A DNA stretch of 64,000 nt. Source: Isosphaera sp. GTDB lineage: Bacteria > Planctomycetota > Planctomycetia > Gemmatales > Gemmataceae. The notes under the pieces were generated by a model. The model was not told where the DNA came from and did not search any database. It was given only the letters and a program-made list of their open reading frames with translations. The stretch spans positions 1-64,000 of the forward strand of contig PNKH01000014.1 in NCBI GenBank assembly GCA_013822345.1. The letters are read 5' to 3'. Positions 3,361 through 59,060 of this stretch are shown in pieces. The number at the start of each line of letters is the position of its first letter. Position 1 is the stretch's first letter. The translations under genes were made by a program, and so were the position numbers.

Positions 3361-4185
3361 TCACTTCTTGTCCTTCCCCTTCACCTCCCAGTAGTGCAGC
3401 GTGTACTCGTCCCCGTCCGCCCCGGTCACCTTCACCGTCGAGTCCGGCTTCCAGTCCCCGAGCCCGAACCGGTGCGACACCACCCGGGTGCCGGGCTTCA
3501 GCAGCTTCTGCAGCACCGGCGCCATCCGCGCCCCGAGGTCGTCCCCGATGTAGATCAGCACCACGCTCGCCTCCGCGCACACCGCCATGTCCTTCTCGCT
3601 CAGGATGTCCCCCTCCTTGATCACCACCCGCTCCGCCACCCCCTCCGCCTTCGCCTTCTCCTCCGCCGCCTTCACCATCTTCGGGTCGATGTCGATCCCG
3701 ATCCCCTTCCTCGCCCCCAGCTTCTTCACCGGCCGGATCAGCATCACCGCGTCCCCGCACCCCGGGTCGAAGATCACGTCGTCCTTCGTCACCTTCGCCA
3801 GCTCCGCCATCTTGTCCACGATGTCGTCCGGGGTGGCCACCCACCGGACCACGATCTTGTCCCGCTTCTTGTCCTCCGCCGTCAGGTCCACCTTCACCTG
3901 GTCCCCGGCCTTCACCGTCACCTCCCGCGGCCGGGTGATCTTGGTGTAGTTGTTCGGCTCGATCACCGCCTCGACCTTGAACGTGTACTCCTTCCCGGCC
4001 TCCAGGGCGGGCGTGGTGAACGTCCGCGCCTCCCCGGTCCCCTTCACCTCGGCCCCGTCGACCGTCACGACCGTGTCCTTGAACAGGCTCTTCGGGACCG
4101 TGATGGTGATGACGGCGGCCTTCTTCTCCTGCCCGCACGCCAGCCCGGCCAGGGCGACGGCGAACCCGACGCACAGCGTCCGCAT
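3361..4185 (-). CDS. Exported TIGR03000-class I methyltransferase fusion
   Basis: The 274-residue product has a hydrophobic signal sequence (residues 1-18, ending ALAGLACGQ). A planctomycete TIGR03000 domain follows (about residues 22-100, with VTVDG, FTTPALEAGKEY and KVDLT). A class I SAM-dependent methyltransferase domain completes the protein. Motif I reads VIFDPGCGDAV, motif II GIGIDIDP, and the end contains RVVSHRFGLGDWKPD, as in FAM173/DOT1-like lysine methyltransferases. The oddity is the location: a signal peptide would carry a SAM-using enzyme out of the cytoplasm. The start at 4185 directly precedes the signal peptide. It lies downstream of sat on the same strand, separated by a family A repeat pair. 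Confidence 0.75.
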   Translation of the reverse strand: MRTLCVGFAVALAGLACGQEKKAAVITITVPKSLFKDTVVTVDGAEVKGTGEARTFTTPALEAGKEYTFKVEAVIEPNNYTKITRPREVTVKAGDQVKVDLTAEDKKRDKIVVRWVATPDDIVDKMAELAKVTKDDVIFDPGCGDAVMLIRPVKKLGARKGIGIDIDPKMVKAAEEKAKAEGVAERVVIKEGDILSEKDMAVCAEASVVLIYIGDDLGARMAPVLQKLLKPGTRVVSHRFGLGDWKPDSTVKVTGADGDEYTLHYWEVKGKDKK

Positions 4186-4293: not shown

Positions 4294-4349
4294 GTGGGGC
4301 AGGCATTCCTGCCTGCCGGGCCGTGGCAGGCAGGAATGCCCGCCCCACC
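4294..4349. repeat. Family A palindromic repeat, inverted pair
   Basis: Two copies of the roughly 24-bp family A unit (core GGCAGGCAGGAATGCCTGCC) lie in opposite orientation at 4294-4317 and 4325-4349. Each is itself palindromic, and as a pair they form a longer hairpin. They fill most of the gap between sat and the methyltransferase gene. The second copy has one base changed in the core (GCCCGCC). Confidence 0.9.
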
Positions 4350-5594: not shown

Positions 5595-5605
5595 GGGTGG
5601 AGTGC

Positions 5606-5633
5606 GAGTGTGAGTGTGAGTGTGAGTGTGAGT
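5606..5633. repeat. Hexamer tandem repeat (GAGTGT)n in the sat leader
   Basis: Four perfect copies of GAGTGT plus GAGT (28 bp) occupy the sat upstream region; on the sat mRNA this reads as ACACTC repeats. It ends about 12 bp before the start codon, so it covers the place where a ribosome binding site would be. A tandem repeat here could change copy number by slippage. Confidence 0.9.
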
Positions 5634-6682: not shown

Positions 6683-8110
6683 ATGGTCCCCATGCCGTCC
6701 GTTCTCATCATCGACGACGAGGAGCCGATCGCCTGGGGGCTGCGGCGGGCGTTCGAGCGGGAGAAGTACCGGGTCGGGGTGGCCGCGACCGCCGAGGACG
6801 GCCTCGCCCAGGCCCGCGCCCACCCGCCCGATGTCGTCTTCCTCGACATCCGCCTCCCCGGGATGGACGGCCTCACCGCGCTGGGCGAGCTGCGGGCCGC
6901 CGCCCCGGCCGCGGCCGTCGTCGTGATCACCGCCCACGGGAACCTGGACACCGCCGTCCGGGCGGTCGCCGGCGGGGCGTTCGACTACCTGGCCAAGCCG
7001 TTCGACCTCGCCCAGGCCCTCGACGCCGCGAGGCGGGCGATCACCCGCAGCCTCGGCGAGCCGGCGGCGCCCGCCGCGGCCGGTGACATCGACCTGTCAC
7101 CGGACGCGATCGTCGGCCGCGGCCCCGGGATGCAGGCGGTGTTCAAGCGGGTCGCGCTGGTCGCCCCGACGGCCGCGTGCGTGCTGGTCACCGGGGAGAG
7201 CGGGACCGGGAAGGAGTTGGTCGCCCGGGCGGTCCACGCCCACAGCCCGCGGCGGGCGAAGGCGTTCCTCCCGGTCCACCTCGCGGCCCTGAACCCGAAC
7301 CTGGTCGAGAGCGAGCTGTTCGGCCACACGAAGGGGGCGTTCACCGGGGCGGACAAGCCACGCGACGGCCTCCTCACCCTCGCCGACGGCGGGACCGTGT
7401 TCCTGGACGAGCTCGGCGACATCCCGCTGCCGGTGCAGGCGAAGCTGCTCCGGGTGCTGGAGCGGCAGGAGGTGGTGCCGGTCGGCGGCGGGGAGGCCCG
7501 GGCGGTGGACGTGCGGGTGGTGTCGGCGACGCACGCCGACCTGTCCGCGGCGGTCCGCGACGGCACGTTCCGGCACGACCTGTTCTACCGGCTGAACGTC
7601 TACCCGATCCACCTCCCGCCGCTGCGGGACCGCGTGGACGACATCCCGGCGCTGGCCGAGCACTTCCTGCGGCGGTTCGGGGTGGCGAACCCGGGCGGGG
7701 TGCTGCCGGCGGACACGGTGGCGTTCCTGAAGGCCCGGCCGTGGCCGGGGAACGTGCGGGAGCTGCGGAACGCGCTGGAGCACGCGGCGATCGAGGCCCG
7801 CGGCGGGGCACTGCGGCCGGAGCACTTCCCGGAGCCGTCGGCGGGGGTCGGCCCGGCCGGGGTCGCGGACCGGCTGAAGTCGCTGGTCGCGGAGTGGGTG
7901 CGGGAGCGGACCGCCGGGACGGGTGAACCCGCCGACCTGCACCAGCACCTGCTCGACGTGGTCGAGCCGGCGCTGTTGGACGAGGTGCTGCGGCAGCTCG
8001 ACGGGAACCGGCTGGCGGCGGCCCGGTGGCTCGGCCTGGCCCGGGCGACGGTCCGGAAGATGATCCGCAAGCACCACCCGGCGACGGACGAGCCGGAGGG
8101 GGACGAGTGA
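6683..8110 (+). CDS. Sigma54-dependent response regulator, NtrC family
   Basis: This 475-residue protein has three domains. An N-terminal receiver carries the phosphorylatable Asp55 (VVFLDIRLPGMDG) and the YLAKPF lysine. A central AAA+ sigma54-activation domain has Walker A GESGTGKE, the loop GAFTGADKP that contacts sigma54, and a Walker B region TVFLDELGD. A C-terminal Fis-type helix-turn-helix contains RLAAARWLGLARATVRKMI. It should bind enhancer sites and drive sigma54 promoters. The first ATG (6683) has GGAG 8 bp upstream; MPSVLII at 6692 is an alternative that looks more like the family N-terminus. No histidine kinase gene is adjacent. Confidence 0.95.
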   Translation: MVPMPSVLIIDDEEPIAWGLRRAFEREKYRVGVAATAEDGLAQARAHPPDVVFLDIRLPGMDGLTALGELRAAAPAAAVVVITAHGNLDTAVRAVAGGAFDYLAKPFDLAQALDAARRAITRSLGEPAAPAAAGDIDLSPDAIVGRGPGMQAVFKRVALVAPTAACVLVTGESGTGKELVARAVHAHSPRRAKAFLPVHLAALNPNLVESELFGHTKGAFTGADKPRDGLLTLADGGTVFLDELGDIPLPVQAKLLRVLERQEVVPVGGGEARAVDVRVVSATHADLSAAVRDGTFRHDLFYRLNVYPIHLPPLRDRVDDIPALAEHFLRRFGVANPGGVLPADTVAFLKARPWPGNVRELRNALEHAAIEARGGALRPEHFPEPSAGVGPAGVADRLKSLVAEWVRERTAGTGEPADLHQHLLDVVEPALLDEVLRQLDGNRLAAARWLGLARATVRKMIRKHHPATDEPEGDE

Positions 8111-8114
8111 CGGA

Positions 8115-8312
8115 GGCAGGCAGGAATGCCTGCCCCACTGTTGAGGAGAGACGGCAGGCAGGAATGCCTACCGGTTCTGGGTGGGGCGGGCATTCCTGCC
8201 TGCCGGTGGCTCGGTACGGGCGGGCATTCCTGCCTGCCGGTGGCTCGGTACGGGCGGGCATTCCTGCCTGCCGGAGGCACTGATCTGGGTGGGGCAGGCA
8301 TTCCTGCCTGCC
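8115..8312. repeat. Family A repeat array 5' of RAYT1
   Basis: Six copies or partial copies of the GGCAGGCAGGAATGCCTGCC unit are present. Those at 8115-8138 and 8153-8170 are forward; those at 8181-8204, 8221-8238, 8255-8272 and 8289-8312 are reversed. Positions 8205-8238 and 8239-8272 are an exact 34-bp tandem duplication that includes one unit. The array runs from the stop of the response regulator gene to the ribosome binding site of the transposase gene. Confidence 0.92.
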
Positions 8313-8323
8313 GGAGGGCAACC

Positions 8324-8794
8324 ATGTCCGAACCGCGACCCCGGCCCGAACTCCGCGTCACCCGGCGACATCTCCCCCACTGGCAGCGGGAAGGCAGCAC
8401 CTACTTCGTCACCTTCCGGCTGCGGGCGGGCGCGCTGGTTGAGTCCGAACGGCGGATCGTCGGCGACCACGTCCGGGCCGGACACGGCCGGTTCTACGCC
8501 CTCTCCGCCGCCGTGGTGATGCCGGACCACGTCCACCTGATCCTGCGCCCGCTCGCCGGCTACGACCTGTCGCGCGTCATGAAGGGCGTCAAGGGCGTGT
8601 CGGCGAACCTCCTCAACCGGGCGCGCGGCTCGTCGGGGCACGTCTGGCAGGACGAGTCGTACGACCGGATCCTGCGGGACGAGGCCGAGTTCAACGAGAA
8701 GCTGGAGTACATGCTCAGCAACCCGGTGAAGGCTGGGCTGTGTCCCGTTGGCGAAGAGTACGACGGCTGGTTGTACATCCCGGATAGTGATTGA
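8324..8794 (+). CDS. REP-associated tyrosine transposase (RAYT1), Y1 HUH family
   Basis: This 156-residue protein is a single-domain HUH endonuclease of the IS200/TnpA_REP type. The motif MPDHVHLIL gives the metal-binding pair His69 and His71, and EYMLSNPVKAGL supplies the catalytic Tyr129 and the NPV signature of the REP-associated branch. These enzymes nick single-stranded DNA at the foot of palindromic repeats and are thought to spread them. The ATG at 8324 follows GGAGG at 8313-8317, which abuts the last repeat copy. No second transposon gene or terminal direct repeat is seen. Family A repeats lie on both sides (8115-8312 and 8796-8901) and elsewhere in the window, so they are its likely substrates. 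The frame appears intact. Confidence 0.92.
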   Translation: MSEPRPRPELRVTRRHLPHWQREGSTYFVTFRLRAGALVESERRIVGDHVRAGHGRFYALSAAVVMPDHVHLILRPLAGYDLSRVMKGVKGVSANLLNRARGSSGHVWQDESYDRILRDEAEFNEKLEYMLSNPVKAGLCPVGEEYDGWLYIPDSD

Positions 8795-8795
8795 C

Positions 8796-8901
8796 GGCAG
8801 GCAGGAATGCCTGCCCCACCGGACTGACCCGCGGCAGGCAGGAATGCCTGCCCCACTGGGTCCCGAGCCCACCCCCGGTGGGGCAGGCATTCCTGCCTGC
8901 C
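8796..8901. repeat. Family A repeat array 3' of RAYT1
   Basis: Three copies are present: 8796-8820 and 8833-8856 forward, and 8878-8901 reversed. The array begins one base after the RAYT1 stop codon and ends 18 bp before the peptidase start. Orientation changes from forward to reverse within the array, as on the 5' side. Confidence 0.92.
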
Positions 8902-8919: not shown

Positions 8920-10974
8920 ATGCGCCGACTCGTGCCCCTCGTCCTGTTCGCCCTCGCGGTCCCGGCGACCGCCCAGGACCGCACCCACGACATCACCCCT
9001 GACGACTACGCGTCGGTGAACACGATCACCGAGATCGCCGTCTCGCCGGACGGGAAGCGGGTCGCGTACTGCCTCGCCACCTGGGACAAGAAGGCCGACA
9101 ACCGCCGCACCGACCTGTGGGTCGTGGACGCCGACGGCAAGGGGAAGCCGGCGCAGCTGACCAAGGACCGGGCCAACGACCGCCACCCGAAGTGGAGCGC
9201 CGACGGCAAGGCGGTGTACGTGCTGGCGAACCGCGGCGAGGCGAAGGCCAAGGCGCAGGTGTGGAAGGTGCCGGTCGGCGGCGGCGAGCCGGAAGCCTTC
9301 ACGAAGGTGAAGGACGGCGTGGTCGCGTTCGACTACGCCCCGGCCGCCGACCTCGTGTTCTTCTCGGCCGACGCCGCCGCCATCGACGAGGACGCGTTCA
9401 CCGCCCTGCGGAAGAAGTTCCCGAAGCCGGAGTACGGCAGCGGCAAGCGGACGGTGAGCGAGGTGTTCACGGTGAAGGCGCCGGGGGCCGAGCCGGAGAA
9501 GTTGATCGCGGAGGGGCGGTACGTCCGCGAGTTCGCGGTGACGCGGGACGGGAAGCGGGTGGCGCTGGTGACGGCGGCGGACGACACGGTGATCCGGTCG
9601 GAGGGCGAGAGCCGGGTGGACGTGTGGGAGGGCGGGAAGGTCGTCACCCCGCCGACCGACGTTTACCGGGCCAAGGCCGCCAGCCCGTACGCCTGGCTCG
9701 AGCACCTGGCGTGGAACCCGGACGGGACGCGGTTCGCGTTCTGCGCCATCTTCGACGCCTACCCGGCCGAGGTCATCGTCGGCGAGTTGAGGGGCGGTAA
9801 GTGGGCGACGGTCCGGGTGCGGCGCGACGGGATTCATACCGACGGCGACCCAATGTTCCAGACCCGCGGCTACGGCTCGCCTTCGGTCTGGGAGGCGCCG
9901 GACGTCCTGCTTTCCCTGATCGAGTACCACGCCAACGTGGGCACTCTGACGACGAACCTCGCCGACCCGGATCAAGCTCGGCAGAAATACTCCTACCGGT
10001 CGGGGTTCATCTACGGCTTCGATCTCCTTGGCACCCCTGCCGCAGGCAGGGCGGCCCGGCTGGTGCGCATCCACGGGGCGTCCGAACGCTTCCCCGAACT
10101 CGTCGTCGATGGGACCGACGGGGCCAGGGAGTTGACGCTCACCGACCTCAACCCGCACACGAAGACCTGGAAACTACCGTCCGTCCGGCACGTCCTTTGG
10201 AAGGCCCCGGACGGCGCCGAGGTCGGCGGGCCGCTCGAACTCCCGTTCGGCTGGAAGAAGGGCGACAAGCCGCTCCCGCTGGTCGTCGCGATCCACGGCG
10301 GGCCGACCACCGCCAGCTACGCCGACCTCCGGTTCGACCCGCACAACGGCCGGCTGTACTTCGCCGCCAACGGGTACGCGGTGCTGTGCCCGAACTACCG
10401 CGGCTCCACCGGGTACGGCGACAGATTCACCACCGACCTCATCGGCCGCGAGAACGACGTTGAGGTGAAGGACATCATCGCCGGCATCCAACACCTCATC
10501 AAGGAAGGCGTCGCCGACCCGGAGCGCATCGGTGTGATGGGCTGGAGTAACGGCGGGTATCTCACCAACTGCCTCATCACGATGAAGGACCCGCCGGTGA
10601 AGATCAAGGCGGCGTCGAGCGGGGCCGGGATCGTGGACACGGTCGCCGAGTGGGGGTTCAACGACGAGCCGGCGTACCCGATGGTGTTCAAGAAGGGGCT
10701 GCCGTGGGAGCAGCCGGACCTCTACAAGAAGACCTCGCCGACCTACCAGCTCGGCAACGTCAAGACGCCGACCCTGATCCACGTCGGCGGGAACGACGTC
10801 CGCTGCCCGCCGGGCCACAGCCGGATGCTCCACCGGGCGCTCAAGGAGTACGTGAAGGTGCCGACGGAGCTGGTCGAGTACCCCGGCGAGCCGCACGGGC
10901 TGACGAAGCTCAGCAACCGCGTCGCCAAGATGGAGTGGGACCTGGCGTGGTTCGACAAGTACCTTCGGAAGTGA
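8920..10974 (+). CDS. Secreted S9 family prolyl oligopeptidase-like peptidase
   Basis: This 684-residue protein begins with a clear signal peptide (MRRLVPLVLFALAVPATAQ). The first two thirds form a beta-propeller with WD40-like/TolB strands (SPDGKRVAY, KWSADGKAVY). The C-terminal alpha/beta-hydrolase domain has an IHGGP oxyanion segment. The catalytic triad is Ser543 (GWSNGG), Asp626 (GGNDVRC) and His659 (GEPHGL). It probably cleaves peptides in the periplasm, as acylaminoacyl- or dipeptidyl-peptidases do. The ATG at 8920 was chosen because it begins the signal peptide; the longer open frame upstream is family A repeat sequence. Its TGA stop overlaps the first two bases of the palindrome at 10973. 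Confidence 0.95.
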   Translation: MRRLVPLVLFALAVPATAQDRTHDITPDDYASVNTITEIAVSPDGKRVAYCLATWDKKADNRRTDLWVVDADGKGKPAQLTKDRANDRHPKWSADGKAVYVLANRGEAKAKAQVWKVPVGGGEPEAFTKVKDGVVAFDYAPAADLVFFSADAAAIDEDAFTALRKKFPKPEYGSGKRTVSEVFTVKAPGAEPEKLIAEGRYVREFAVTRDGKRVALVTAADDTVIRSEGESRVDVWEGGKVVTPPTDVYRAKAASPYAWLEHLAWNPDGTRFAFCAIFDAYPAEVIVGELRGGKWATVRVRRDGIHTDGDPMFQTRGYGSPSVWEAPDVLLSLIEYHANVGTLTTNLADPDQARQKYSYRSGFIYGFDLLGTPAAGRAARLVRIHGASERFPELVVDGTDGARELTLTDLNPHTKTWKLPSVRHVLWKAPDGAEVGGPLELPFGWKKGDKPLPLVVAIHGGPTTASYADLRFDPHNGRLYFAANGYAVLCPNYRGSTGYGDRFTTDLIGRENDVEVKDIIAGIQHLIKEGVADPERIGVMGWSNGGYLTNCLITMKDPPVKIKAASSGAGIVDTVAEWGFNDEPAYPMVFKKGLPWEQPDLYKKTSPTYQLGNVKTPTLIHVGGNDVRCPPGHSRMLHRALKEYVKVPTELVEYPGEPHGLTKLSNRVAKMEWDLAWFDKYLRK

Positions 10975-12493: not shown

Positions 12494-12543
12494 GTGGGGC
12501 AGACATTCTTGTCTGCCGGGCAGGCAGGAATGCCTGCCCCACC
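12494..12543. repeat. Family A repeat pair with a compensated variant
   Basis: An inverted pair of family A units lies at 12494-12517 and 12519-12543. In the first copy the core reads CAGACATTCTTGTCTG instead of CAGGCATTCCTGCCTG. The G-to-A change in one half of the stem is matched by C-to-T in the other, so pairing is kept. This is direct evidence that the hairpin, not only the sequence, is maintained. Confidence 0.88.
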
Positions 12544-50795: not shown

Positions 50796-50848
50796 CGGCG
50801 GTCTCCGGATGAGGGGGAGGGATGTGCAGAGGGTACCGGGCCGGGCGG

Positions 50849-50879
50849 TTGGCCACAACTCCCGAGTCGGGTAAACTAC
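50849..50879 (+). promoter_or_regulatory. Promoter of the DUF1501 gene with CGGGTAAACTAC motif
   Basis: TTGGCC at 50849-50854 and TAAACT at 50872-50877 are 17 bp apart. The 12-bp CGGGTAAACTAC (50868-50879) is identical to that at 45554-45565, and the distance from its last base to the ATG is also 45. Confidence 0.55.
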
Positions 50880-50923
50880 AATCCTCCGGTCGCTCACGCC
50901 CCCGGCTCGCCAGGGCCCCCGCC

Positions 50924-52396
50924 ATGACGCACGTCCCCCGCCTGTTCGCCTCTCCAGAGGCCGCGTACCGCTCGCGCCGCGAGTTCCTCGCCAAGGCCGG
51001 CGGCGGGTTCGGCATGCTCGCCCTCGCCGACCTCCTCCGGGCGGAGGACAAGACGGCCGGGGTAAACCCGGCCGCTCGCCCGGCCGGGCCGCTCGCCCCG
51101 CGGGCGCCGCACTTCCCGGCCAAGGCGAAGCGCGTCATCTGGCTGTTCATGAACGGCGGGCCGAGCCACGTCGACACCTGGGACCACAAGCCGGAGCTGG
51201 ACAAGCAGGACGGGAAGGAGCTGAAGGGGTTCGACCCGAACACCGGGTTCTTCAACGCCCAGGTCGGGCCGCTGATGAAGTCGCCGTTCAGGTTCGCCAA
51301 GTATGGGCAGTGCGGGAAGATGGTCAGCGACCTCTTCCCGCACATGGCGAAGCACGTCGACAAGATGGCGTTCGTCCACTCGCTCTGGAGCGACTCGAAC
51401 AACCACTCCCCGGCCCTGTTCAAGATGAACACCGGGATGAGCCGGATGGGGTTCCCGTGCGCCGGCTCATGGGTGACCTACGGCCTCGGCAGCGAGAGCC
51501 AGAGCCTGCCGGCGTTCTGCGTCATGTACGACACCCTCGGCCGGGGCGTCCCGAAGGGCCACTCGCTGAACTGGGGGGCGGGGTTCCTGCCGACTGTGTA
51601 CCAGGGGACGGCGTTCAAGCCGCAGGGCGAGCCGATCGACAACCTCACCCGCCCGTCGGACCTCACCGCCGACGGCCAGCGGGCGCAGCTCGACCTCCTC
51701 GCGAAGCTCAACAAAAAGGGGATGGAGAAGCTGCCGCCCGACCCGGACCTGACCGCCCGGGTCGAGACGTTCGAGCTGGCGTACCGGATGCAGATGGCCG
51801 CCCCGGACGCCCTCGACCTGTCGAAGGAGACGGCGGAGACGCAGAAGCTGTACGGGCTGGACAACCCGAAGGCGACCCACTTCGCGAAGCAGTGCCTGAC
51901 CGCCCGCCGGCTCGTCGAGCGCGGGGTCCGGTTCGTGCAGATCTACAGCGGCGGGATGGAGAACGACCTCTCCTGGGACGGGCACAACAACATCGTGAAG
52001 AACCACACCGGGTTCGCCGCCGAGACCGACCAGCCGATCGCCGGCTTACTCGAAGACCTCGACCGCCGCGGGCTGCTGGCGGACACGCTCGTGATCTGGG
52101 GCGGGGAGTTCGGCCGGCTGCCGATCGTGCAGAAGGGGAACGCCGGGCGGGACCACAACCCGCACGCGATCACGTACTGGCTCGCCGGCGGCGGGGTGAA
52201 GGGCGGGGTCAGCTACGGGGCGAGCGACGAGATCGGGTTCAAGGCGGCCGAGAACCGGGTGAGCATCAACGACTTCCACGCCACTGTCCTGCACCTCATG
52301 GGGATGGACCACAAGAAGCTGACGTACCGGCACAACGGCCGGGACTTCCGGCTGACGGACGTGGCCGGGACGGTGGTGAAGGAGGTCCTCTCGTAG
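50924..52396 (+). CDS. DUF1501 family protein, Tat-exported
   Basis: This 490-residue protein has a Tat-type signal (SRREFLAKAGGGFGMLALADLL) and an alkaline-phosphatase-like fold typical of DUF1501. RVIWLFMNGGPSHVDTWDHKP carries the first metal ligand region, NNHSPALFKMNTG the second. The end contains LVIWGGEFGRLPIVQ, GRDHNPHAITYWLAGGGVKGG and SINDFHATVLHLMGMD with further His/Asp ligands. It should work with the PSCyt1/PSD1 protein at 45610. The ATG at 50924 is the first after the promoter. Its TAG stop (52394-52396) lies within the first bases of the repeat at 52393. Confidence 0.93.
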   Translation: MTHVPRLFASPEAAYRSRREFLAKAGGGFGMLALADLLRAEDKTAGVNPAARPAGPLAPRAPHFPAKAKRVIWLFMNGGPSHVDTWDHKPELDKQDGKELKGFDPNTGFFNAQVGPLMKSPFRFAKYGQCGKMVSDLFPHMAKHVDKMAFVHSLWSDSNNHSPALFKMNTGMSRMGFPCAGSWVTYGLGSESQSLPAFCVMYDTLGRGVPKGHSLNWGAGFLPTVYQGTAFKPQGEPIDNLTRPSDLTADGQRAQLDLLAKLNKKGMEKLPPDPDLTARVETFELAYRMQMAAPDALDLSKETAETQKLYGLDNPKATHFAKQCLTARRLVERGVRFVQIYSGGMENDLSWDGHNNIVKNHTGFAAETDQPIAGLLEDLDRRGLLADTLVIWGGEFGRLPIVQKGNAGRDHNPHAITYWLAGGGVKGGVSYGASDEIGFKAAENRVSINDFHATVLHLMGMDHKKLTYRHNGRDFRLTDVAGTVVKEVLS

Positions 52397-52502
52397 GGTG
52401 CGGTCGAGGCCGCGCTTCGCGGCCGATGACGCACCACGACCGCGCGGGCGTGAAGACGGTGCGTCGTCGCCGGGCGAGGCGCCCGGCTCGACCGCACCCT
52501 AC
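52393..52502. repeat. Family D 110-bp palindromic element, left of RAYT2
   Basis: The element runs from GTAGGGTGCGGTCGAG to its complement CTCGACCGCACCCTAC. Inner hairpins are GGCCGCGCTTCGCGGCC and GCCGGGCGAGGCGCCCGGC, and GACGCACC faces GGTGCGTC. Its first bases supply the TAG stop of the DUF1501 gene. An element of the same length and design lies at 53079-53188. Confidence 0.92.
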
Positions 52503-52522
52503 GGCCCCGGCCGGAGCCGGCG

Positions 52523-53073
52523 ATGCCCACCTACCGCCGCAACTACGTCCCGGGCGGCACCTACTTCTTCACGGTTGTGACGCACGGCCGGGCCCCGATC
52601 CTGACGACCCTCTCGGTCGTCGGTGCCTCCGGTCGGCGTTCGAGGCCGAGCGTGAGGTTCGGCCGTTCGACCTCGTCGCGTTCGTCCTGCTCCCGGAACA
52701 CCTGCACACGGTCTGGGTACTCCCCGAGGGCGACTCGAACTACTCGACCCGGTGGCGGCGGATCAAGGGGCGGTTCACCGAAGTGTTTCTGGAGGCCGGC
52801 GGGGGCGAGGGTGAGACGAGCCGGTCGCGGGCGGTGCGGTCGGAGCGGGGCGTCTGGCAGCGGCGGTTCTGGGAGCACACCGTCCGGGACGAGGACGACC
52901 TGGAGCGGTGCCTGAATTACACCCACTACAACCCGGTCGAGCACGGCCGGGTCGCGGCCGTCGCCGACTACCCGTGGTCGTCCTTCCACCGGTACGCGGC
53001 GTCGGGCGACTACCCGCCGGACTGGGGGTCGGTGGGTGACCCCGGGGACATCCCGGGCGCCGAGTGGGAGTGA
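52523..53073 (+). pseudogene. Frameshifted second RAYT transposase (RAYT2)
   Basis: A REP-associated Y1 transposase begins at the ATG at 52523 (MPTYRRNYVPGGTYFFTVVT). It shifts frame near 52610, after ILTT: one added base would restore the family reading PLGRRCLRSAFEAE. In the second frame it continues with VLLPEHLHTVWVLP (HUH pair), VWQRRFWEH and LNYTHYNPVEHGRV, which has the catalytic Tyr and NPV motif, to a stop at 53073. It belongs to a different RAYT subgroup from RAYT1. It is bracketed by two 110-bp palindromes of its own type. No slippery heptamer is seen at the shift, so it looks inactivated rather than programmed. Confidence 0.88.
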
Positions 53074-53078
53074 CGACC

Positions 53079-53188
53079 GTAGGGTGCGGTCGAGCCGGGC
53101 GCTTCGCCCGGCGACGACGCACCGCGCCGCCGACCGCGCGGTCGTGGTGCGTCGTCGGCCGCGAGGCGCGGCCTCGACCGCACCCTAC
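53079..53188. repeat. Family D 110-bp palindromic element, right of RAYT2
   Basis: Again GTAGGGTGCGGTCGAG on the left and CTCGACCGCACCCTAC on the right, with GCCGGGCGCTTCGCCCGGC and GGCCGCGAGGCGCGGCC as inner hairpins. It is exactly as long as the left copy. The TAG stop of the minus-strand desaturase gene (53185-53187) lies inside its right end. Confidence 0.92.
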
Positions 53189-57888: not shown

Positions 57889-58004
57889 CCTGGACCGCGG
57901 CCGTCCCGGCCGCTGCCACCGACCCCGACCCGGCCGCGACACGGAAGAACGTTGACGCCCCCCAAGCAGACCGCGTGGTGCGGCCGGGACGGCCGCGCTC
58001 CAGG
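57889..58004. repeat. Family B inverted repeat pair
   Basis: A direct copy at 57889-57914 (CCTGGACCGCGGCCGTCCCG core) and an inverted copy at 57980-58004 flank about 65 bp. They lie in the divergent gap between the ABC ATPase gene and cysK. The cysK promoter starts 11 bp after the second copy. Confidence 0.9.
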
Positions 58005-58014
58005 ACCGCCGCCC

Positions 58015-58043
58015 TTGCCCGTTCCCCGCACCGCGGTTACATT
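58015..58043 (+). promoter_or_regulatory. Candidate promoter for cysK
   Basis: TTGCCC at 58015-58020 and TACATT at 58038-58043 have a 17-bp spacer. The start would be near 58050, followed by GGAGGTGA as ribosome binding site. Confidence 0.55.
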
Positions 58044-58070
58044 GCCGAGCAACTTCCGGAGGTGACGGCG

Positions 58071-59060
58071 ATGGCTGAAGACAGCACCTTCCGCGGCCAC
58101 GTCTACGACGACATCACCCAGTGCGTCGGGCACACCCCGCTGGTCCGCCTCCGCCGGGTCGCCGGGGACGCCAAGGCCACCCTGGTCGCCAAGCTGGAGA
58201 ACTTCAATCCGCTCTGGTCGGTCAAGGACCGGATCGGGGTGGCGATGATCGACGCGGCCGAGAAGGCCGGGAAGATCAAGCCGGACACCATGATCGTCGA
58301 GCCGACCAGCGGGAACACCGGGATCGGCCTGGCGTTCTGCTGCGCCGCCCGCGGGTACAAGCTCACCGTCACCATGCCGGACAGCATGTCGCTGGAGCGG
58401 CAGCGGCTCCTCAAGGCGTTCGGGGCGACGCTGGTGCTCACCCCGCGCGAGTACGGGATGCGCGGGGCGGTGAACGAGGCGGCGAAGATCGTGGCCGACC
58501 TCGGCGGGGAGCCGAAGGCGTTCATGCCGCAGCAGTTCAAGAACCCGGCCAACCCGGAGGTCCACCGGAAGACGACCGCCGAGGAGATCTGGCGGGCGAC
58601 CGGCGGGAACGTCGACATCCTCGTCTCCGGGGTCGGGACCGGCGGGACGATCACCGGGTGCGGCGAGGTGCTGAAGACCCGCAAGCCGTCGGTCAAGTGC
58701 GTCGCGGTCGAGCCGGCCGCCAGCCCGGTGCTGACGCAGCACGTCGTGCAGGGGGTGCCGAAGGACCAGGTGAAGCCGGGGCCGCACAAGATCCAGGGGA
58801 TCGGGGCCGGGTTCGTCCCGGACGTGCTGAACACCGCGGTCATCGACGAGGTGGTGCAGGTGACCGACGACGAGTCGTTCGAGATGGCCCGCCGGCTGGC
58901 CAAGGAAGAAGGGATGCTGTGCGGCATCTCGTGCGGGGCGGCGGCGGCGGCGGCGGTGAAGGTGGCGAAGCGGCCGGAGAACACCGGCAAGCTGGTCGTG
59001 GTGGTGCTGCCCGACCTCGGCGAGCGGTACCTGAGCACCGCCCTGTACCCGCAGGACTGA
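58071..59060 (+). CDS. cysK: Cysteine synthase (O-acetylserine sulfhydrylase)
   Basis: This 329-residue PLP enzyme forms cysteine from O-acetylserine and sulfide. The PLP-binding lysine is in [11 protein letters not shown], the substrate loop reads [11 protein letters not shown], and the phosphate-binding loop reads [21 protein letters not shown] near the C-terminus matches the family's SSGAA-type serine position. The ATG at 58071 follows a perfect GGAGGTGA. Together with sat at 4356 it covers both ends of assimilatory sulfate use, though the intermediate genes are not in the window. Confidence 0.95.

What the first reader, a model, noticed from the sequence alone, without database searches (positions are those of the whole stretch)
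8115..8901. Intact RAYT1 bracketed by arrays of one palindromic repeat
The single-domain HUH transposase gene has six family A copies immediately upstream and three immediately downstream. Forward copies switch to reversed copies on each side. More inverted pairs occur at 4294-4349 and 12494-12543. This is the layout expected for a RAYT and its REP-like substrate. A 34-bp exact tandem duplication (8205-8272) points to recent local amplification.
Basis: partly seen in the sequence, partly recalled or inferred. Interest (0 to 1): 0.62.

Follow-up and report, generated by a model that had tools for sequence, protein, structure and literature searches.

The report
Transposase gene with its hairpin repeats
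A planctomycete bacterium carries a small single-strand DNA transposase gene lying inside copies of the short hairpin repeat that it most likely spreads around the genome; this is a known kind of partnership, here in a lineage where the gene and its repeats seem to be gained and lost together.

Summary
Window 8324-8794 is an intact REP-associated tyrosine transposase (RAYT/TnpAREP) with nine copies of one 20-bp palindrome around it, six upstream and three downstream. The core occurs 131 times exactly in the 7.47-Mb genome (reversed control 0) and forms 53 close perfect inverted pairs with GTGG feet outward: a REP/REPIN family. Of 94 other genomes of the host family, two hold one copy and 92 none. 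Related RAYTs there sit beside different palindromes of the same format; for the four patterns counted, genomes with the matching RAYT hold 746 of 793 copies. REP sequence follows the RAYT tree, also between phyla. The RAYT-REP block is absent between the same two genes in 11 relatives, and this RAYT branches with proteins of Ignavibacteriota, Bacteroidota, Acidobacteriota and Myxococcota rather than with the other RAYTs of its host family, which suggests horizontal gain. Best reading: a canonical REPtron whose transposase spreads REPINs by single-strand cleavage; cleavage and movement are inferred, not shown. New member of a known kind. Less usual: turnover of the block within a genus, frozen arms around drifting spacers, and DUF1501 genes as frequent neighbours of such transposases.

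The parts
8324..8794 (+). RAYT1 gene, 156 aa, HUH motif His69-Val-His71, candidate catalytic Tyr129
   Evidence: NF047646 87.9 bits, cut-off 80; Y1_Tnp; 4er8 best by sequence and fold; catalytic residues invariant in 33 proteins
8115..8138 (-). REP with GTGG foot
8153..8172 (-). REP core, 1 mismatch, no GT[AG]G foot
8181..8204 (+). REP with GTGG foot, 1 mismatch in core
8219..8238 (+). REP core of tandem array, 1 mismatch, no GT[AG]G foot
8253..8272 (+). REP core of tandem array, 1 mismatch, no GT[AG]G foot
8289..8312 (+). REP with GTGG foot, exact; its stem ends 11 nt before the ATG of RAYT1
8796..8819 (-). REP with GTGG foot, exact, just after the RAYT1 stop codon
8833..8856 (-). REP with GTGG foot, exact
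8878..8901 (+). REP with GTGG foot, exact
8184..8278 (.). tandem array, period 34, 2.8 copies
4294..4348 (.). REPIN: inverted REP pair, one arm with 1 mismatch
   Evidence: folds as one long hairpin, z -7.6
12494..12542 (.). REPIN: inverted REP pair, one arm with 3 mismatches
6683..8110 (+). flanking gene: sigma-54 dependent response regulator
   Evidence: Pfam; direct neighbour of the peptidase gene in 11 relatives
8920..10974 (+). flanking gene: prolyl-oligopeptidase (S9) family
   Evidence: Pfam

Best explanation
This is a REPtron: a RAYT gene inside inverted copies of its own REP hairpin. The protein is predicted to fold as a HUH-Y1 single-strand endonuclease (model, and best match to the E. 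coli RAYT). It most likely binds the single-stranded hairpin GTGG-GGCAGGCA-TTCC-TGCCTGCC, reading foot, stem and loop, cuts beside it with Tyr129 and rejoins the ends (inferred from published work on the E. coli, Stenotrophomonas and Marinomonas enzymes). Repeated action has spread inverted REP pairs (REPINs) through the intergenic space of this genome; 53 perfect pairs are counted, the process that made them is inferred. The block was probably gained horizontally by this lineage (inferred from tree and empty sites).
For: RAYT model over cut-off, IS200 model far below. Fold: 4er8 first, E 1.9e-7. Catalytic residues invariant in 33 proteins. 131 exact cores against 0 for the reversed control; 53 perfect inverted pairs; 41 of 42 exact-core sites read have a GTGG foot. 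20 of 20 site clusters between genes by a crude gene caller. Matching RAYT genomes hold 746 of 793 copies of four patterns in 95 genomes. 12 of 13 full-length family RAYTs are flanked by a repeated palindrome, each with its own sequence; the exception has lost one HUH histidine and the tyrosine. RAYT and REP distances correlate over 39 loci (r 0.27, p 0.0008; different phyla only r 0.24, p 0.005). G025 with RAYT 239 copies, G013 with the empty site 7. The other Y1 genes of the genome have no copy of this core within 1.5 kb.
Against: No cleavage, excision or new insertion was observed; no strain pair shows an empty site for a plain REPIN (searches failed to give one with both flanks). Copies exist in some genomes without a RAYT1-type hit at 1e-10: G062 13, G066 10, G018 3, G024 2, G053 2. 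A footed repeated hairpin was found at only 41 of 60 RAYT loci. In G037 (5 of 5) and G027 (8 of 12) the copies are at the RAYT locus itself, not genome-wide. Four of the 12 REP types found beside family RAYTs were not counted genome-wide.
Confidence: 0.9

Rival explanations
1. The repeats are host elements (terminators, mRNA 3' stabilisers or protein binding sites) kept for their own use, and the RAYT is incidental.
For: Sites lie between genes; 16 of the 18 clusters that have a gene 3' end on one side are within 40 nt of it (read). The window pair 4294-4348 folds into a very stable hairpin (z -7.6).
Against: Family members have almost none of this repeat, and each RAYT comes with its own repeat type. 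A host function would not predict this. A secondary host use is not excluded.
Confidence: 0.05
2. RAYT plus nearest inverted REPs is an autonomous insertion sequence of the IS200/IS605 kind, and dispersed REPs are its non-autonomous derivatives.
For: The gene lies inside inverted REPs; in 25 of 31 loci with REPs on both sides the nearest two are opposite. The block is present or absent between fixed neighbours at two sites of the genus.
Against: IS200 model 24.8 bits, cut-off 55. One copy of this RAYT type in the genome: the only other hit at 1e-10 is 39% over part of the protein.
Confidence: 0.05

Closest known systems
RAYT/TnpAREP REPtrons of group 3 (subclass 2.5), e.g. Stenotrophomonas REPtron Sm (PMC8266576, PMC6006769; passages and sections read)
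   Same: Y1 HUH protein; short perfect palindrome with an 8-bp stem directly after a GT[AG]G foot; inverted REPs around the gene; W and Q kept, E100 replaced by D, R104 kept.
   Different: Host phylum, GTGG rather than GTAG foot, 4-nt TTCC loop, and presence or absence of the block within a genus.
REPINs (Bertels and Rainey 2011, PMC3116915; passages read)
   Same: Inverted REP doublets able to form a hairpin, dispersed between genes, with a RAYT beside a cluster of them.
   Different: Short spacer (mode 11 nt); spacers all different among the 50 pairs listed.
GTAG-tagged REP dimers (PMC3733652; passages read)
   Same: Foot-tagged palindromes in dimers, reported for Planctomycetes at phylum level; variable spacers of some dimers are reported there.
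   Different: This family and its host genus were not named in the passages seen.
IS200/IS605 transposons
   Same: Y1 HUH fold and hairpin substrates.
   Different: Below the IS200 model's cut-off; one gene copy; repeats dispersed without the gene.

Membership tests
RAYT / TnpAREP | Single-domain Y1 HUH protein matching the RAYT family | tested here: met
   87.9 bits, cut-off 80; HUH and Tyr invariant; 4er8 first by fold
RAYT / TnpAREP | Gene flanked by REPs in inverted orientation | tested here: met
   + at 8289-8312 and - at 8796-8819 are nearest
RAYT / TnpAREP | REP with GT[AG]G foot and hairpin, many dispersed copies outside genes | tested here: met
   131 exact cores; GTGG in 41 of 42 sites; 20 of 20 clusters intergenic by a crude caller
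RAYT / TnpAREP | REP type goes with RAYT type | tested here: met
   746 of 793 copies in matching genomes; Mantel p 0.0008; with the exceptions listed under evidence against
RAYT / TnpAREP | Stable gene, kept in place (reported tendency) | tested here: inconclusive
   RAYT1 site empty in 11 relatives; another RAYT kept at one site in 4 and missing there in 10
RAYT / TnpAREP | Strand-specific cleavage of REP | not testable with these tools
   needs purified protein
RAYT group 3 / subclass 2.5 | Short perfect palindrome, foot plus stem 10-13 nt; D for E100 | tested here: inconclusive
   4 + 8 = 12 nt and Asp114 at the E100 place; subclass 2.7 shares the residue and no subclass tree was made
REPIN | Two REPs as a close inverted pair that recurs in the genome | tested here: met
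   53 perfect pairs; 8 of 8 copies in 400 kb are paired
IS200/IS605 | IS200 transposase model over cut-off | tested here: not met
   24.8 bits, cut-off 55

The most novel reading that the evidence does not exclude
In this family the RAYT together with its flanking REPs is an exchangeable cassette: acquired across phyla, placed between (or lost from) fixed gene pairs, seeding the genome with its own REPIN type and later lost, leaving relics; DUF1501 genes are a favoured neighbourhood. This would contrast with the published statement that there is no evidence of tnpAREP mobility (passage), although lateral transfer of RAYTs has been reported before.
Probability: 0.35. Interest if true: 0.6.

Novelty: new member of a known kind. 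Interest (0 to 1): 0.38.

Why it matters
It extends a well-defined transposase-repeat partnership to a planctomycete genus in which several RAYT lineages, empty sites and relic repeat families lie side by side. That natural series (RAYT gained, kept, lost) lets the spread and decay of REPINs be measured, and makes the open question of whether RAYT genes themselves move testable.

Tried and rejected
CRISPR, integron attC or a plain minisatellite: rejected, because copies are dispersed over many contigs, mostly in inverted pairs with a shared GTGG foot.

Target-captured spacers: I first took the 50 different spacers (50 of 53 pairs listed) as possible target DNA. In G011 (14 pairs), G026 (13) and G025 (7), chosen from the listed pairs, spacers are also all different, but mostly of one length and many are visibly related, so the pair is more likely copied as a unit and the spacer drifts. 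In G000 a residual consensus exists: 11 of 50 have GAGC at an end, 0.56 expected.

Translational control by the REP before the start codon: the fold is not unusual (z -0.94 and -1.19) and the gap varies between loci, so not claimed.

Empty site at 12494-12542: G022 synteny stops before it. Empty site for the two REPINs of L030: only one flank is conserved in 6 relatives.

Cut site: the two bases at -3/-2 before GTGG are CC in 18 of 41 sites (13% background, p 1e-6, sites not independent). This fits the change from GTAG to GTGG giving cleavage at CC in a Marinomonas substrate but could be just the outer end of the element.

Rows left out: one search used 13 of the 30 family RAYT loci given for and 47 of the 80 named loci (the rest partial or weaker). 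L100 and L107 were dropped from the tree for stops, L080 from the Mantel test as a near copy. Four REP types beside family RAYTs (G028, G057, G091 and the second RAYT of G025) were not counted genome-wide. The DUF1501 test used four DUF1501 proteins taken from RAYT neighbours as queries, which favours finding those loci; its background is from G000 only.

Literature: searches listed no paper on REPs or RAYTs in Gemmata. I saw passages of PMC3733652, PMC6006769 (and its section 12), PMC8266576 (and its section 21), PMC2817692 and PMC3116915; other papers only in listings.

Full report
Protein. The window holds an intact ORF at 8324-8794 coding for 156 aa. It scores 87.9 bits on NCBIfam's REP-associated tyrosine transposase model (cut-off 80) and 24.8 bits on the IS200 transposase model (cut-off 55). 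Pfam gives Y1_Tnp. A sequence search of the PDB gives the E. coli RAYT 4er8 first (E 1.1e-5). An AlphaFold2 model made from the window protein and 32 named relatives has mean pLDDT 87.5; Foldseek puts 4er8, a RAYT bound to a REP hairpin, first (E 1.9e-7, TM 0.63-0.67), followed by IS200-type transposases. His69, His71, Trp108, Asp114, Arg118 and Tyr129 are invariant in those 33 proteins.

Repeat. Thirteen matches with at most 3 mismatches lie in the window, none in 100 shuffles. The unit is GTGG followed by an 8-bp perfect stem with a TTCC loop. In the whole genome (7,468,024 bases, 226 contigs) the 20-bp core occurs 131 times exactly, 64 and 67 on the two strands, against 0 for the pattern read backwards. 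The 24-mer with foot occurs 187 times with up to 3 mismatches; the 100 places listed are all exact. Fifty-three perfect inverted pairs lie within 30 bp, feet outward, up to 106 of the 131 cores. In 400 kb taken at fixed places I found 8 copies at up to 4 mismatches, all in pairs, 7 exact and 1 with one mismatch. A crude gene caller of mine put 20 of 20 distinct site clusters between genes (13 between genes of one direction, 5 convergent, 2 divergent); 16 of the 18 with a gene 3' end on a side lie within 40 nt of it.

Arms and spacers. The 50 listed spacers (of 53 pairs) are all different, 47 of them 6 to 12 nt long excluding the single 6-mer, with a mode of 11 nt (19 of 50); 11 have GAGC at an end where shuffles give 0.56, and 11-nt spacers resemble one another more than shuffled ones. 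In genomes with other REP types, spacers of pairs chosen from the lists are likewise different but of nearly fixed length: 14 of 14 distinct in G011 (12 of them 16 nt), 13 of 13 in G026 (10 of them 10 nt), 7 of 7 in G025 (17-21 nt), 3 distinct among 6 in G032 (all 2 nt). These pairs were found by exact arms, but the fixed-place sample above shows that near-identity of arms is real in G000. The pair is therefore most likely the copied unit, with a drifting spacer and fixed arms. That is expected if only elements with intact arms are recognised and recopied; homogenisation would look alike.

Relatives. In 95 genomes of the host family, the core is present in G000 (131), G022 (1) and G042 (1). 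Hits to RAYT1 at E 1e-10 occur in 26 of 95 genomes, G000 included. Around 12 of 13 full-length ones a palindrome is repeated, of different sequence but the same format: GT[AG]G foot, stem kept by changes on both sides, mostly pyrimidine loop. The exception, L042 (G046), has HVP in place of HVH and a serine in place of the tyrosine. Three further patterns were counted in the same 95 genomes: CACAGACATTCCTGTCTGTG gives G025 239, G011 91, G062 13, G066 10, G013 7, G024 2, G091 1; CACAGGCTTTCYAGCCTGTG gives G020 42, G026 38, G037 5, G025 5, G013 2, G053 2; GCSRGRCACTCTTGYCYSGC gives G032 188, G027 12, G018 3. Genomes with the matching RAYT hold 746 of 793 copies. Against the simple picture: G018, G024, G053, G062 and G066 hold some copies without a RAYT1-type hit, and in G037 (5 of 5) and G027 (8 of 12) the copies lie at the RAYT locus.

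RAYT and REP together. With named genomes I examined 60 loci: 13 of the family and 47 of 80 named ones. A repeated, footed hairpin was detected at 41 of 60, and at the other 19 not (some are at contig ends or may have been missed by the detector). Where both sides had one (31 loci) the nearest two were opposite in 25: 19 plus/minus and 6 minus/plus (one-sided p 0.0004, not corrected for relatedness). A maximum-likelihood tree of 58 proteins puts RAYT1 in a clade (100/98) with proteins from MAGs of Ignavibacteriota, Bacteroidota, Myxococcota, Acidobacteriota, Calditrichota and Zixiibacteriota, apart from the main clade of its host family; the family's 13 RAYTs need 7 changes on the tree, at least 5 forced by well-supported branches. 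RAYT1 is sister to the other seven members of its clade, so the direction of transfer is open, and MAG labels can err. Over 39 loci, RAYT distance and REP distance correlate (r 0.27, p 0.0008), also for pairs of different phyla only (r 0.24, p 0.005). The host family is inferred as Gemmataceae: L080, a named Gemmataceae record, has the same RAYT as G025 (branch length 0), and G025 is in the genus of G000.

Sites. The genes beside RAYT1, a sigma-54 response regulator and a prolyl-oligopeptidase, are direct neighbours with 66 to 275 bp between them (stop codon included) in 11 genus members (G009, G010, G011, G012, G016, G017, G019, G021, G023, G024, G025), against 812 bp in G000. No RAYT is found in these stretches, and a footed hairpin in one of the 11 gaps only (G019). 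In G022 the genes lie apart; in the 6 other genus members the hits were on different contigs or 32 kb apart and were not fetched. A second, different RAYT sits after a DUF1501 gene in G011, G020, G025 and G026, with a WD40-like gene (named by eye) on the other side in three of them (not seen in the G020 stretch). The same pair of genes has no RAYT between them in G000, G009, G010, G012, G013, G014, G016, G017, G018 and G019; G015 and G024 could not be judged. G013 and G025, whose DUF1501 proteins are 96-97% identical, make a natural pair: 7 copies of the repeat without the RAYT, 239 with it.

Mechanism. Published work, read in passages and two sections, reports that TnpAREP of E. coli, Stenotrophomonas and Marinomonas cut single-stranded REP beside the hairpin with the tyrosine and depend on the foot (PMC8266576); that RAYTs are flanked by inverted REPs and coevolve with them (PMC2817692); and that REP doublets behave as replicating units (PMC3116915). 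Foot plus stem of 12 nt and Asp at the place of E100 fit subclass 2.5 (group 3), though 2.7 shares the residue (PMC6006769). The anatomical features are met here; cutting and movement are inferred. The excess of CC just before the GTGG foot (18 of 41) is a testable guess at the cut site.

Verdict. The thing is a new member of a known kind. What lifts it above routine is that the RAYT block looks foreign to its family and is positionally variable within the genus, against published statements that tnpAREP genes behave like housekeeping genes with no evidence of mobility (passages), and that DUF1501 genes are over-represented beside Y1 genes of the family (9 of 27 locus groups against 7 of 120 background tiles, p 0.0003; with the query bias told under Tried and rejected).

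Noticed in passing
L031-L060, L009, L011, L012, L013 (1.5-kb flanks); window 50822-52396: A DUF1501 gene (PF07394) lies within 1.5 kb of RAYT/Y1-type genes in 16 of 34 loci of the family (9 of 27 after merging orthologous loci), against 7 of 120 tiles of the own genome, 2 of 19 REPIN loci and 1 of 21 window tiles. Reason unknown; queries came from RAYT neighbours, which favours some hits.
   Followed up: partly
52393-53188: A second RAYT (140 bits on the RAYT model) is split over two frames near 52618, so it is frameshifted or misassembled; it lies between two inverted pairs of an exact GTAG-footed 16-mer (52393+/52487-, 53079+/53173-).
   Followed up: partly
L013 and L014 (G000 contig C40, about 57,900-58,270): Another Y1 gene of the own genome, matched in two pieces, is surrounded by many copies of a long GC-rich palindrome of its own.
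   Followed up: no
L185, L187, L188, L190, L193 (gap between regulator and peptidase): Where the RAYT block is absent, several relatives have long imperfect inverted repeats in the same gap, unlike REPs and different in each genome (seen by eye).
   Followed up: no
L231, about 4030-4095 (G000 contig C9): At the second RAYT site of the genus, empty in G000, a REPIN of the window's own family lies just after the WD40-like gene.
   Followed up: no
5600-5633: A run of 5.7 copies of the hexamer GAGTGT.
   Followed up: no
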